Shown here one piece after another: positions 18,645 through 25,006 of a stretch of DNA of 64,000 nt. Location of the stretch: the NCBI GenBank assembly GCA_017474285.1, contig JAFVHT010000065.1, positions 1 through 64,000 on the forward strand, given 5' to 3'. Position numbers and translations under genes: made by a program. Position 1 is the first letter of the stretch. Each line of letters begins with the position of its first letter. The notes beneath the pieces are model-generated. The model had not been told where the DNA came from, ran no database searches, and saw only the letters and a program-made list of their open reading frames with translations. The stretch is from Acetobacter sp. Lineage in GTDB: Bacteria > Pseudomonadota > Alphaproteobacteria > Acetobacterales > Acetobacteraceae.

Positions 18645-19769
18645 TTACATTGCTAATGGAGGTTGCACATCTTCACTCATAATTGTTTGTAACACTTGAA
18701 TATCTGGTTCTTGTATCCTCGCTACACGCCGTGCGTGGTTCATAATTAAGCTTTCGTACAAATTTCTTACAAATCTACCGTTAGAAAAATCTTCTTTCTT
18801 TTCTTCTTTCAGCGTAACTTCCAATATCTCATTTATTTTTTTTATCGCTGATTGCTCAAGTATATAATCATTTTCTTGACACATATTTTGCAAAATTTCT
18901 TTTAATTCTGCTTTATTGTAATCCTCAAATTCTATGAAAGAATTGAAACGAGATTTAAGCCCAGGATTTGATTTAAAAAAACGTTGCATTGGTTCTGTAT
19001 AGCCTGCGACGATGACAACTAAATCTTTGCGATAGTCTTCTAGTAGCTTTGTCAATACCGTCAAGCACTCTCGTCCATATGAATCGCTATTATCATTTTC
19101 TGTAATGCTATATGCCTCGTCAATAAACAGCACACCGCCTTTTGCTTTTTTAATTACATCATGAACTTTTAGGGCTGTTTGCCCCTGATATCCAGCAATA
19201 AGATCGGTGCGCGACACTTCTAGGAAATGCCCTTTTGATAGAAGTCCAAGTTTTTTATAAATTCTACCAACAATTCGAGCTACAGTTGTTTTTCCCGTTC
19301 CTGGATTTCCCATAAATGCCATGTGCATAGTGCTGTTGTCGGCTTTTAAATGACGCTCCTTGCGCAACATTTGAACTTTTTGAAAAGCAATTAATCTTTC
19401 AACTTCTTCTTTTACTTTCGCTAATCCAACTAGATTATTCAAACGTGCCAACAAATCATCAAGTGTTGCTACATCATCTGGCTCGTTTTCTGTAAGCGTA
19501 TCTTCTTCTCTATGTTCGCATATATCACGAATTTTACGATTCCCATAGTAGATGTAGAGGGAACTCTGAAAGATTCCTACCAAAGACCGAGTTGGTTCAT
19601 GCTCATTCTTCAGCATCGTCAGAATGGCATCTAATAATTGATTTAGCGTAGATCCTCTTTCTTCCGCAAGAAGTATCGTGCAGGTTTCTTTTAACCTATA
19701 AGCTTGGGTCGTTTTTTTATCCAATTGCTCTGCTATATGCAGCAGCTGACTTTCAATTTGATGAACCAT
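18645..19769 (-). CDS. AAA+ ATPase, CbbX/CfxQ (SpoVK-like) type
   Basis: Last gene of a three-gene module. The 374 residues have a helical N-terminal domain (1 to about 100) and one AAA+ domain: Walker A GNPGTGKTT (154-162), pore-loop-like GYQGQT (193-198), Walker B VLFIDEAY (213-220) and an arginine-finger candidate in LKSRF (271-275). The closest named groups are CbbX (Rubisco activase), SpoVK and the EccA ATPases of type VII secretion. All remodel partner proteins, and no Rubisco or ESX genes are here. It starts 5 bases after the coiled-coil gene, so joint translation is likely. Remodelling of its neighbours is an inference. Confidence 0.85.
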   Translation of the reverse strand: MVHQIESQLLHIAEQLDKKTTQAYRLKETCTILLAEERGSTLNQLLDAILTMLKNEHEPTRSLVGIFQSSLYIYYGNRKIRDICEHREEDTLTENEPDDVATLDDLLARLNNLVGLAKVKEEVERLIAFQKVQMLRKERHLKADNSTMHMAFMGNPGTGKTTVARIVGRIYKKLGLLSKGHFLEVSRTDLIAGYQGQTALKVHDVIKKAKGGVLFIDEAYSITENDNSDSYGRECLTVLTKLLEDYRKDLVVIVAGYTEPMQRFFKSNPGLKSRFNSFIEFEDYNKAELKEILQNMCQENDYILEQSAIKKINEILEVTLKEEKKEDFSNGRFVRNLYESLIMNHARRVARIQEPDIQVLQTIMSEDVQPPLAM

Positions 19770-19774
19770 ACCGT

Positions 19775-20575
19775 TTATCTTACAAAGGCAATAACGATCA
19801 ATGTAATCAATGAAATGCCCGCAATTACTATAGCAATTCTACATTGCATTTTTATGCTTTGGCATTTTGCCTCATAAATGTCCATTTTTTCATCCACTTG
19901 AGACCTATTTTCTTCTAGCCGTTTAGTTAAATTTTTGATGGATGTATCATTTTTTATCACTATATTTGATACACATTCAACTCTACTTTTAATGCTATGT
20001 ATTTGCGCTGCGGTACTCTTTTCCCTTTTAAAGATCCATTTTTTCTCTCGTTCGAGAAGATTAACTTTTTTTTCAATAGCCATCCAAAAAGCTTTGATCT
20101 CATCTGTACTTTTCTCGAGCTCACGCAGATCTTCATATAAAGTATCAATTTCCTTCAAATGCTTTAAAGAACGCAATTCTGCTTGAAACGACAGAAGGAT
20201 TTTAATTGCTTTCTCCGTCTCCCTTTGAGCTTTCATTGCTTGATTGCTTGCTTCCTTAGCTTGTTCTACAGAACAAACAATTCCCGAGAGATACTCCTTA
20301 TCTTTGGCGTTAAACAAACTGCACACGTTGCAAAGTTCACTAAAAAATTTTCTAATGTTTTCATCTCTCTCCGCAAAGCGTTTTTGTATCTCACCAACGA
20401 AGGTGTTCATTTCTTCGCCAGTTACCTTATGATCTCTACTGAACCACAAAAAACTATCTTTCGTCTCATAAATTGGTAACTCAATTTTTTTTTCCAGCTG
20501 TGATAAACATTCCTTGTTCCGCTTTTCTAGCTCTTCAAAACAATCACCTTCTTTCTTTATGAGAATATTGTCCAT
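19775..20575 (-). CDS. Tail-anchored coiled-coil protein (unknown)
   Basis: Middle gene of the three-gene module. It encodes 266 residues rich in Glu, Lys and Arg. Long helices predicted as coiled coil cover about 90-240, and a single C-terminal hydrophobic helix (about 246-265, IAIVIAGISLITLIVIAFVR) should anchor it in the inner membrane with the bulk in the cytoplasm. Four to five cysteines are scattered in the soluble part. There is no enzyme motif and no recognised family. It lies 20 bases after the HNH-like gene and 5 before the ATPase gene. A scaffold or signal-transmitting role between the two is only an inference. Confidence 0.7.
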   Translation of the reverse strand: MDNILIKKEGDCFEELEKRNKECLSQLEKKIELPIYETKDSFLWFSRDHKVTGEEMNTFVGEIQKRFAERDENIRKFFSELCNVCSLFNAKDKEYLSGIVCSVEQAKEASNQAMKAQRETEKAIKILLSFQAELRSLKHLKEIDTLYEDLRELEKSTDEIKAFWMAIEKKVNLLEREKKWIFKREKSTAAQIHSIKSRVECVSNIVIKNDTSIKNLTKRLEENRSQVDEKMDIYEAKCQSIKMQCRIAIVIAGISLITLIVIAFVR

Positions 20576-20595
20576 ATTCCGTCATAACCTCTTTT

Positions 20596-22245
20596 TCAGA
20601 ATAATCCCTTTTCCAATTGATCAAAAGCATCTGTATGATCCACTTGTACGTCAGTGTTTTTTCGGACATTATTAATGGACTTTGCCATAATTTCCGCTGT
20701 TTTTTGGTGTCTCTCCACCATATCTCTGAATAGAGCTATCTTTTGGCTAGCAAGTTTACATTCTTCAACAGCGAGTAACTGTTGTTGACAGGTTAAAAGT
20801 TCATTGCCCTTCTCAATTTCTTCCTTTTCGATTGCCTGTTTTTGATATTTTAGAGAAATATTGTTCAATTTTTGAATAAGCAATGCACCAATAATGCCAG
20901 ACGTCAAAGCACCCAAAAATAAACCAACAATACTTGCTAAACTCCCAAAAAGCGGAATTTCAATCGCAAAGAGTGGAAACGTCATCAGTCCTTTTTCAAT
21001 TACTTCGCCAAGCACAATCGAACCAACTGCACTAGCACCCCCGACAAGTATTTTCCCGGCTTCTGCGATTAAAACGCCAATCGGTTTATTTTTGTTTGCT
21101 GGATTTTTTATATATTGAACGGCTTCACGAATGGATTTAAATGCCTGCTTTAACATTGTCCAAGCTTTTCGTATTGTCCTAACGATAGGACCAAAAACCG
21201 CTGTAACAATAGAGGTGATACATGTATCCGCTGCCACGGATAAATGCTTTTTAATATTGGAAAAAAAATCAGATAAAGCCTCTTTGATATAGGCAAATAA
21301 TTCTTCTAGAGTCTTTTTTCCATTTTTGAACCAAACAATCAATTTTTTCATGATTGTTTTCAAAAGCGTCGCTAGCATTCCCATCAATGCCACTTGTAGT
21401 GCTTTTCCGCCTATGCGGAAGGCTTCTTCTCGTTGAGATTGTCGCCCAGTTGCTACAGATCGCTTCTGTCCTTCTGCTTTTAGTTCTTCAAAGTCCTCTT
21501 TCGCAACTTTGCCTTGTTGACGCAATGCTTCTTCATCAATGGGAAACCGCTCGGCAGGTTTTTCCCCGTCGCGTTCACTATCCAACCAAACATCCATGTC
21601 ACTATCACCTTTTGATTGATTGGCTGCCTTGTCTAGTGGATTCAAATTTTTTTCACTGTTTGCAAATGCAACTTGTTCTTCACGAGATAAATGTGCATTC
21701 GCCGCTGGATCTCGGATAATTCCTGCCGCTGGAATAGTATGATCCATATCAACAGTACCAGTCCCAGTAGGTCTTCCTTTATCGAAATCAGCTCTAGCTT
21801 CTTTTTTTAAGACGAATTTTTCTGAACCTGTTCGATTATCACGTGTCGTTTTTATATTTCCTGCCTCATCGCGCGCAAAATTGTTTTGCCAATCATCATA
21901 TCTTTTTTGATAATCAATTTGGCTATTGTGCGTGGCAATCTTTCCGTTTGTAAAATTTTCTGTTGTTTGTATGTGTGCATCATTGCTCAAATCTAACGTC
22001 ATGCCACGATTTGATTTGATAAAATCTTCACCAGCCACTGCACCAATCTGAATGATCGTTTGGTCCCATACACCGTTAAAGATTGTTTCAGCTAAAGCCT
22101 CATACGTTCCTAATTTTTCTTTATTTTTAGCAAGCACTTCCATGTCTGCCATTTTTTGTGCGAGTTTTGCTTCGAGTGCTTGCTCCAATACGTCAAGTGT
22201 ATCAAAATTAGGAGTAATTGCTTTTTGTATTTCTTTAGACTGCAT
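20596..22245 (-). CDS. Membrane protein with HNH-nuclease-like motif (unknown)
   Basis: First gene of the module, 549 residues, with the ATG preceded by AAGGAA. Residues 110-215 read like an HNH endonuclease lacking zinc cysteines: VDMDHTIPAA (His169), then EKNLNPL (Asn200) and AANQSKGD (Asn209/Lys212), matching the DHxxP...N.L...N.xKGD pattern. The second half is helical with hydrophobic segments at about 280-305, 340-356, 388-418 and 421-458, then a coiled coil (465-525). There is no signal peptide. A membrane-held nuclease is the simplest reading. Sequence upstream suggests a promoter with a C-rich homopolymeric spacer. No homologous family was recognised. Confidence 0.7.
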   Translation of the reverse strand: MQSKEIQKAITPNFDTLDVLEQALEAKLAQKMADMEVLAKNKEKLGTYEALAETIFNGVWDQTIIQIGAVAGEDFIKSNRGMTLDLSNDAHIQTTENFTNGKIATHNSQIDYQKRYDDWQNNFARDEAGNIKTTRDNRTGSEKFVLKKEARADFDKGRPTGTGTVDMDHTIPAAGIIRDPAANAHLSREEQVAFANSEKNLNPLDKAANQSKGDSDMDVWLDSERDGEKPAERFPIDEEALRQQGKVAKEDFEELKAEGQKRSVATGRQSQREEAFRIGGKALQVALMGMLATLLKTIMKKLIVWFKNGKKTLEELFAYIKEALSDFFSNIKKHLSVAADTCITSIVTAVFGPIVRTIRKAWTMLKQAFKSIREAVQYIKNPANKNKPIGVLIAEAGKILVGGASAVGSIVLGEVIEKGLMTFPLFAIEIPLFGSLASIVGLFLGALTSGIIGALLIQKLNNISLKYQKQAIEKEEIEKGNELLTCQQQLLAVEECKLASQKIALFRDMVERHQKTAEIMAKSINNVRKNTDVQVDHTDAFDQLEKGLF

Positions 22246-22337: not shown

Positions 22338-22369
22338 AACTTACTGGGGGGAGGGGGGGGGGTAGTCAA
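22338..22369 (-). promoter_or_regulatory. Candidate promoter with C-tract spacer
   Basis: On the minus strand TTGACT (22369-22364) matches the -35 consensus in five of six bases. It is followed by A, C10, T, C6, AG and then TAAGTT (22343-22338), a weak -10. The spacer is therefore 20 bases, above the optimal 17. About 90 bases separate this from the first gene of the module. Tract-length change would alter the spacer. This is inference from sequence alone. Confidence 0.4.
22346..22362. repeat. Homopolymer tract G6-A-G10
   Basis: Six G, one A and ten G on the plus strand. Tracts of this kind are slippage-prone. This one lies inside the candidate promoter of the three-gene module. Confidence 0.85.
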
Positions 22370-22494: not shown

Positions 22495-22569
22495 TGGCTG
22501 GGGCGGGAGGATTCGAACCTCCGCATGGCGGAATCAAAATCCGCTGCCTTACCGCTTGGCTACGCCCCA
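22495..22569 (-). tRNA. tRNA-Gln (anticodon TTG)
   Basis: Complete cloverleaf on the minus strand. The acceptor stem is TGGGGCG/CGCCCCA with discriminator G and encoded CCA. The anticodon stem GCGGA/TCCGC has loop TTTTGAT and anticodon TTG. The T arm is GGAGGTTCGAATCCTCC. Its 3' end faces the three-gene module. Confidence 0.97.
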
Positions 22570-24676: not shown

Positions 24677-25006
24677 ATGAGTCAAAATAAAGCACATAAC
24701 AATTCAGAAAGAAAACCTATCAAATCGCTTGATGACTTAGATAAGCAAACAGGTGCTATATATTTTAATCCACTGATAAATACATATTTAGATAAAGTCA
24801 TCGAATTTATGACAAAAAACGGCACCCAAGATGTTCAACGTTTGCAACTCAGTTCACCATGTGCCACTCTTATATATAGTGCACACGCTGAGGAAAACTT
24901 TAAAGCCGTCAACCAAGCCAATGATATCCTCTCTGACCTGGAAAAACGTGCTCGTTTTGACCGTGGCGAAATTGATGCCAATGGGCACCCTACTAGAAAT
25001 TATTAG
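24677..25006 (+). CDS. Chimeric ORF carrying a duplicated J-domain fragment
   Basis: A 109-residue ORF. The first two thirds (SLDDLDKQTGAIYFNPL and onward) match nothing I know. Its C-terminal third, from AHAEENFKAVNQANDILSD to GEIDANG, is a near copy of part of the J-domain and adjoining region of the gene at 25061-25927, carried on a 107-bp direct repeat. The copied piece lacks the HPD motif and the first two J-domain helices, so it cannot act as a co-chaperone. It then ends in HPTRNY. An ATG follows GAAAGAAAGCAT. Most likely a by-product of duplication rather than a selected gene. Confidence 0.4.
   Translation: MSQNKAHNNSERKPIKSLDDLDKQTGAIYFNPLINTYLDKVIEFMTKNGTQDVQRLQLSSPCATLIYSAHAEENFKAVNQANDILSDLEKRARFDRGEIDANGHPTRNY
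24881..24987 (+). repeat. 107-bp direct repeat, copy 1
   Basis: Matches 25181-25287 at 104 of 107 positions, exactly 300 bases apart. The three differences are T here and C in copy 2. One changes Pro to Leu and two are silent. Confidence 0.95.

What the first reader, a model, noticed from the sequence alone, without database searches (positions are those of the whole stretch)
18645..22245. Isolated three-gene module: HNH-like membrane protein, tail-anchored coiled coil, CbbX-type AAA+ ATPase
Three tightly spaced minus-strand genes (gaps of 20 and 5 bases) sit between housekeeping genes. The first product has a cysteine-free HNH-like pattern (DMDH, NLNP, NQSKGD) joined to membrane helices and a coiled coil. 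The second is a coiled coil with one C-terminal membrane anchor. The third is an AAA+ remodeller with intact Walker A and B. A membrane-held nuclease candidate, a scaffold and a remodelling ATPase resemble the logic of abortive-infection or membrane-associated defence systems. I know no described system with this trio; the defence role is inference.
Basis: partly seen in the sequence, partly recalled or inferred. Interest (0 to 1): 0.85.

Follow-up and report, generated by a model that had tools for sequence, protein, structure and literature searches.

The report
Three-gene membrane nuclease defence candidate
Three neighbouring genes that travel together between very different bacteria encode a membrane-held DNA-cutting enzyme candidate, a membrane-anchored coiled-coil helper and a protein-pulling motor, probably a defence against viruses that nobody has tested, and the motor may control the enzyme by gripping its tail.

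Summary
Three intact minus-strand genes (18645-22245; gaps of 20 and 5 bases) sit where a congener carries an arfB-like gene. No homologue was found in 99 other relatives. The same trio, in the same order and on one strand, occurs at ten distinct loci in other phyla, on plasmids and in viral contigs; its AAA+ proteins form one clade (support 100/100). The first protein belongs to a large, mostly unnamed family already in PADLOC as the candidate component PDC-M40B. Its relatives neighbour WYL regulators, the jumbo-phage sensor JukA or other PADLOC candidates. The cysteine-free HNH motif is real: D/E-H, N-L/M and N-x-x-K are kept in 25 of 26 family proteins. AlphaFold models were too poor to confirm the fold. 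New here: trio effectors carry a C-terminal 'RH tail' that is missing from relatives without the AAA+ gene. A small membrane protein found in half of the trio loci ends in the same tail. Because CbbX-type AAA+ motors pull C-terminal tails, I propose that the AAA+ protein, docked by the coiled coil, controls the membrane nuclease through this tail. Defence and nuclease activity are inferred, untested. Verdict: new variant of a candidate defence family.

The parts
20596..22245 (-). Gene 1: 549-aa membrane HNH-like protein (PDC-M40B relative), putative effector
   Evidence: homologues; alignment
21610..21744 (-). HNH-like core of gene 1, residues 168-212 (D168 H169, N200 L201, N209, K212)
   Evidence: invariant H/N/N/K in trio alignment; motif in 25 of 26 family proteins; profile match in register to true HNH domains
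20875..21393 (-). Membrane/glycine-rich region of gene 1, residues about 285-457
   Evidence: hydropathy scan; conserved in all relatives
20599..20757 (-). C-terminal 'RH tail' of gene 1, residues about 497-549 (R512 H513 invariant), shared with the small membrane protein of other trio loci
   Evidence: HMM test; alignment
19775..20575 (-). Gene 2: 266-aa coiled-coil protein with a single C-terminal membrane anchor
   Evidence: found on plasmids only with the trio
19781..19837 (-). C-terminal membrane helix of gene 2, residues 247-265
18645..19769 (-). Gene 3: 374-aa SpoVK/CbbX/EccA-clade AAA+ ATPase
   Evidence: tree
19455..19769 (-). N-terminal domain of gene 3 (residues 1-105), specific to the trio subfamily
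   Evidence: only trio AAA+ match the full-length profile; alignment
19287..19310 (-). Walker A, residues 154-161 (GNPGTGKT)
19116..19130 (-). Walker B, residues 214-218 (LFIDE)
22495..22569 (-). tRNA-Gln(ttg) bordering the insert; no second copy of its 3' end in the window
   Evidence: synteny

Best explanation
A mobile anti-phage (or anti-mobile-element) module built round a membrane-bound HNH nuclease effector. Gene 1 sits in the membrane with its HNH domain facing the cytoplasm and is held quiet. Gene 2 is a tail-anchored coiled-coil adaptor that brings the gene 3 hexamer to the membrane. On infection, gene 3, like CbbX pulling the RbcL C-terminus, grips the C-terminal RH tail of gene 1 and remodels it, switching the nuclease on (or releasing it) against incoming or replicating foreign DNA. 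In about half of the loci a small membrane protein carrying the same tail acts as competitor or regulator. Shown by sequence: the conserved operon, the conserved HNH-type residues, the membrane segments, the intact AAA+, and the shared tail confined to AAA+-bearing loci. Inferred: defence, nuclease activity, topology, tail recognition, the direction of the switch and the trigger.
For: Trio in the same order at ten distinct loci: window, Treponema L001, Lachnospiraceae L002, Lactococcus plasmids L005 and L006 (counted as one), G116 L024, viral contigs L031 and L032, L140, L141, L142. Viral-contig copies lie beside paired serine recombinases. AAA+ of the trio are one clade, 100/100, and in 398 genomes of the L002 phylum the full-length trio AAA+ occurs only in the two genomes with the trio HNH. 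AAA+ and coiled-coil distances correlate strongly (Mantel r 0.74, P 0.002; HNH with AAA+ 0.35, P 0.04; HNH with CC 0.41, P 0.016). HNH residues kept in 25 of 26 family proteins; profile match to true HNH domains E 3e-4 to 4e-4 against 0.59 (reversed) and 0.31 (membrane region). RH-tail HMM built from effectors finds all five small membrane proteins (E 1e-6 to 2e-11) and nothing else among 1945 ORFs. PADLOC PDC-M40B E 1e-14; WYL regulator directly upstream in five trio loci; JukA next to a distant relative. CbbX pulls the RbcL C-tail (PMC5385338) and its clade acts on dedicated targets (PMC10659427).
Against: No experiment. Fold unconfirmed: AlphaFold pLDDT 47 and 51. Pfam gives only sub-threshold HNH_4 and GmrSD_C matches, and only in distant relatives. 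The window copy has neither a WYL gene nor the small tail protein, and no other recognised defence gene was seen beside it. HNH distances follow AAA+ distances only weakly. Tail recognition by AAA+ is by analogy; the tail could equally bind gene 2.
Confidence: 0.42

Rival explanations
1. SNIPE-like: the HNH protein is constitutively active at the membrane and cuts phage DNA as it enters; the AAA+ and coiled coil only assemble or maintain it.
For: [quoted passage not shown] Gene 1 has the same logic, membrane part plus nuclease-type motif. Distant relatives work in other operons without any AAA+.
Against: No GIY-YIG or DUF4041 match. The conserved AAA+ and a tail found only where the AAA+ is present suggest active control.
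Confidence: 0.25
2. Membrane-disrupting effector: the damage is done by the glycine-rich membrane region (pore or leak, as JukB does), and the HNH domain has a structural or sensing role.
For: A distant relative is encoded next to JukA, and JukA is known to recruit the pore-forming JukB among diverse effectors (PMC13282480). The membrane half is conserved throughout the family.
Against: The HNH residues are the most strictly kept positions in the protein. No JukB model matched.
Confidence: 0.15
3. Not defence: an addiction, competition or envelope-stress module in which the AAA+ is a dedicated chaperone of a membrane enzyme (as SpoVK for MurG, EccA for type VII secretion).
For: The nearest named AAA+ families have such jobs (PMC10659427). 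The window copy lies among housekeeping genes.
Against: Patchy distribution, none in 48 congeners, carriage on plasmids and viral contigs, WYL regulators and PADLOC candidates next to relatives.
Confidence: 0.12

Closest known systems
PADLOC candidate PDC-M40 (components A, B, C) and related PDC-M09
   Same: Gene 1 is homologous to PDC-M40B over most of its length (E 1e-14, residues 105-523) and a distant family member also matches PDC-M09B; both candidates pair the membrane HNH-like protein with a partner gene.
   Different: Gene 2 matches neither PDC-M40C nor PDC-M09A, even by profile comparison; there is no PDC-M40A; the trio adds the AAA+ and the RH tail, which PADLOC does not model.
Juk (JukA/JukB)
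   Same: In Citrobacter, and by annotation in Raoultella, a distant relative of gene 1 lies directly after JukA and a WYL gene.
   Different: No JukA or JukB in the window module; the sensor role would fall to the coiled coil and AAA+.
SNIPE
   Same: Membrane-anchored nuclease logic (PMC13190303).
   Different: GIY-YIG and DUF4041 instead of an HNH-like domain; single gene; no AAA+.
CbbX, SpoVK, EccA
   Same: Gene 3 AAA+ core and lid belong to this clade; CbbX pulls the RbcL C-terminal tail.
   Different: Below the curated equivalog cut-offs for all three; its own clade; different N-terminal domain; operon with an HNH membrane protein.
Type III-A CoCoNuT extension with SpoVK-family ATPase and glycine-zipper protein (PMC11090510)
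   Same: A SpoVK-family AAA+ encoded beside a glycine-zipper membrane protein in a predicted defence operon.
   Different: That ATPase is described as p97/CDC48-like within a McrB-type system; no HNH-like protein or tail-anchored coiled coil of this kind was seen in the passages read.

Membership tests
HNH (beta-beta-alpha-metal) nuclease superfamily | Catalytic D/H-H, N and N/H...K signature in the expected order | tested here: met
   Invariant H169, N200, N209, K212 in ten trio proteins; 25 of 26 family proteins; in-register profile match to PF01844 hits
HNH (beta-beta-alpha-metal) nuclease superfamily | Beta-beta-alpha fold | tested here: inconclusive
   Full-length model shows strand 167-169, strand 201-203, helix 206-213 but mean pLDDT 47; domain model pLDDT 51 without strands there
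HNH (beta-beta-alpha-metal) nuclease superfamily | Nuclease activity | not testable with these tools
   needs biochemistry
PADLOC PDC-M40 | PDC-M40B component | tested here: met
   E 1.1e-14
PADLOC PDC-M40 | PDC-M40C component | tested here: not met
   No PADLOC hit for P0002; hhalign probability 0.3% against an M40C-type alignment
PADLOC PDC-M40 | PDC-M40A component | tested here: not met
   Absent from the whole genome
Juk | JukA sensor | tested here: not met
   None of the three proteins matches JukA; JukA only beside distant relatives
SNIPE | GIY-YIG nuclease plus DUF4041 | tested here: not met
   No such Pfam match
SpoVK / CbbX / EccA equivalogs | NCBIfam equivalog cut-off | tested here: not met
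   275 vs 423, 236 vs 459, 227 vs 467 bits
SpoVK-CbbX-EccA AAA+ clade | AAA core with AAA_lid_6, Walker A and B, GY sensor-1 | tested here: met
   Pfam AAA and AAA_lid_6 above cut-off; invariant G256 Y257; signature as described in PMC10659427
Anti-phage defence system | Protection against phage | not testable with these tools
   only genomic context available

The most novel reading that the evidence does not exclude
A defence system in which a CbbX-type AAA+ motor, docked on the membrane by a tail-anchored coiled coil, switches a membrane HNH nuclease by pulling a transferable C-terminal tail, with a small tail-bearing membrane protein as built-in competitor: a tail-tag control principle not described for bacterial immunity in the literature searched here.
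Probability: 0.25. Interest if true: 0.82.

Novelty: new variant of a known kind. Interest (0 to 1): 0.62.

Why it matters
It joins a widespread but functionally unknown family of membrane HNH-like proteins (candidate systems in PADLOC; members annotated as cobalamin adenosyltransferase or cation transporter on Klebsiella and Lactococcus plasmids) to a specific, testable control mechanism. If right, it would extend CbbX-type remodelling from Rubisco and sporulation to immunity. It would also show how a cell can keep a nuclease safely at its membrane until it is needed. The shared RH tail gives a short, directly mutable element on which to test this.

Tried and rejected
Chance or annotation artefact: rejected by ten conserved loci and intact reading frames. 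Trio as a PDC-M40 or Juk member: rejected, because gene 2 and gene 3 match no such component. Phage or plasmid carriage of the very same DNA: no hit in 50,697 phage records with the window protein or L024, and none in E. coli genomes. Integration at the tRNA with a duplicated 3' end: no second copy in the window. Other viral-contig AAA+ (47 loci): generic SpoVK/CbbX types with no trio partner. Solved-structure search: no meaningful match. Structure prediction: two jobs, both low confidence, so no fold search was run on them. Paper searches for PDC-M40 and for CbbX with phage defence and HNH found nothing.

Full report
OBSERVATION. The three ORFs exist as described, minus strand, 20 and 5 bases apart, in a low-GC stretch (about 0.34-0.41 against 0.45-0.50 in the flanks) next to tRNA-Gln. 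Hydropathy gives several moderate membrane segments in P0001 (285-457), one strong C-terminal helix in P0002 (247-265) and none in P0003.

THE SITE. A complete congener (G018, locus L165) has the same neighbours in the same order: TldD, TyrS, Na+/H+ antiporter, [X], tRNA-Gln, TetR-like, ProC, DnaJ. X is an arfB-like gene there and the trio here (arfB read by eye from the sequence). The search of 100 genomes found P0001 only in the window's own genome, so none of 99 other relatives has it, among them 48 of the same genus. The trio is therefore a recent, strain-specific insert of exactly three genes. I found no integrase beside it and no duplicated tRNA end.

CONSERVED MODULE. The same gene order (HNH protein, sometimes a small membrane protein, coiled coil, AAA+) is found in Treponema bryantii L001 and a Lachnospiraceae MAG L002; in two Lactococcus plasmids; in G116 L024 and viral contigs L031 and L032; and in L140, L141 and L142. 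L138 repeats L031, and L139 is a truncated HNH remnant beside a recombinase. L031 and L032 lie beside paired serine recombinases. A WYL-type regulator gene lies directly upstream in L001, L002, L140, L141 and L142. WYL regulators are known to accompany defence systems (PMC9122601, PMC9122589 and PMC9122588, listed; titles and abstracts only were read).

AAA+ PROTEIN. P0003 has AAA and AAA_lid_6 domains. It scores best with SpoVK, CbbX and EccA models but far below their equivalog cut-offs. In 398 genomes of the L002 phylum, SpoVK-like AAA+ are common (278 genomes), but full-length trio-type AAA+ (above 640 bits; generic ones reach at most 356) occur only in the two genomes that carry the trio HNH protein. 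In a tree of 55 AAA+ cores the ten trio proteins form one clade with 100/100 support. Viral-contig relatives outside this clade have no trio partner.

HNH PROTEIN. P0001 matches PADLOC candidate PDC-M40B (E 1e-14) and is homologous to a wide family: profile comparison of trio and distant members gives probability 99.9% over about 385 columns. In distant members the partner differs: JukA in Citrobacter, and by annotation in Raoultella; a PDC-M09A-type protein, usually with a YkgJ gene (and by annotation 106, 108, 110); a PDC-M40C coiled coil; or a protein of about 180-210 aa. Across the family the residues of the HNH signature are the constant part: D168 H169, N200 L201, N209 and K212 in P0001. 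They are present in 25 of 26 proteins; the exception, on pQBR103, lacks the last lysine. A profile of this region aligns in register with authentic HNH domains taken from relatives (E 3e-4 to 4e-4, probability 35-41%), while reversed and membrane-region controls give 0.59 and 0.31. The reference set was narrow, eight near-identical sequences. The trio subset alone aligned only partly (E 0.005). Pfam sees HNH_4 and GmrSD_C only below threshold in distant members. AlphaFold models were poor: the full-length one places strands at 167-169 and 201-203 and a helix at 206-213, as an HNH site should have, at mean pLDDT 47; the domain-only model (pLDDT 51) does not. So the motif is strong and the fold unproven.

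COILED COIL. P0002 is conserved in its first about 160 residues, including the H49 K50 V51 x G53 x E55 x N57 stretch and an 'HLxxIDxIW'-type unit that is repeated up to four times in L002, and ends in a membrane anchor. On plasmids it is found only with the trio. It is not detectably related to PDC-M40C or PDC-M09A. Pairwise distances of AAA+ and coiled coil are strongly correlated (Mantel r 0.74, P 0.002); those with the HNH protein are weaker (0.35 and 0.41), as if AAA+ and coiled coil work as a unit on a more variable effector.

THE RH TAIL. All ten trio HNH proteins end in a tail with invariant R512 H513 that is missing from the family members without the AAA+. An HMM built only from these tails finds the small membrane protein of L002, L005/L006, L031/L138, L140 and L141 (E 1e-6 to 2e-11) and nothing else among 1945 ORFs, including no coiled coil, AAA+ or distant HNH protein. 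The small protein is thus one membrane helix, a linker and a copy of the effector tail.

MECHANISM. CbbX docks on Rubisco and pulls the RbcL C-terminal tail into its pore (PMC5385338); members of its clade are dedicated chaperones for single targets (PMC10659427). A tail confined to AAA+-bearing loci and carried by two different proteins of the operon fits a recognition tag for gene 3, or a docking site on gene 2. I therefore propose AAA+-controlled activation of a membrane-held HNH nuclease (confidence 0.42 for the whole chain; about 0.7 that the module is defensive). Rivals are a SNIPE-like constitutive membrane nuclease (PMC13190303), a JukB-like membrane-disrupting effector (Juk as summarised in PMC13282480), and a non-defence role.

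NOVELTY. The effector family and its pairing with partner genes are already listed as candidates, so this is a new variant of a known kind, not a new kind. The AAA+/tail-anchored subtype and the shared tail were not found in PADLOC or in the papers searched. That search covers open-licence papers only.

Noticed in passing
L002 9734-10138, L005 7656-8030, L031 7574-8041, L140 3856-4257, L141 7149-7529: Small membrane protein ending in the same RH tail as the trio HNH protein; absent from the window copy.
   Followed up: yes
L010 4513-7323 (Citrobacter plasmid); L011 by annotation (Raoultella): JukA gene directly before a PDC-M40B-type membrane HNH protein, with a WYL gene upstream: a possible Juk effector not matched by any JukB model.
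   Followed up: partly
Klebsiella, E. coli and Duffyella plasmids, e.g. L145 4471-6042, L149 4465-6042; Lactococcus L006 5953-7608: Distant and close members of the HNH membrane family are annotated as cob(I)alamin adenosyltransferase or cation diffusion facilitator, most likely misannotation.
   Followed up: no
window 22346-22362 (minus strand): C10-T-C6 homopolymer run about 100 bases before the start of gene 1, just after a TTGACT; could allow slippage-driven on/off variation of expression.
   Followed up: no
window 24677-25006: 109-aa ORF whose C-terminal part repeats a stretch of the neighbouring DnaJ-like gene (AEENFKAVNQANDILSD...RARFDRGEIDANG): a partial duplication fused to other sequence.
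   Followed up: no
L002 10156-11394, L031 8044-9372, L032 7628-8611: 'HLxxIDxIW' unit repeated two to four times in the coiled-coil partner, one copy in the window protein; repeat number varies between loci.
   Followed up: partly
L139 8399-9052: Truncated trio HNH protein (217 aa) alone beside a serine recombinase: a decayed copy.
   Followed up: no
L140, L141, L142 HNH proteins: N-terminal part (before the HNH core) is replaced by a different segment while HNH core, membrane region and tail stay: possible exchange of a sensing part.
   Followed up: partly
L025 5193-8379, L027 6507-10046: Remote family members lie beside short genes that look TerB-like by eye and a glycine-rich membrane gene; another possible partner type.
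   Followed up: no
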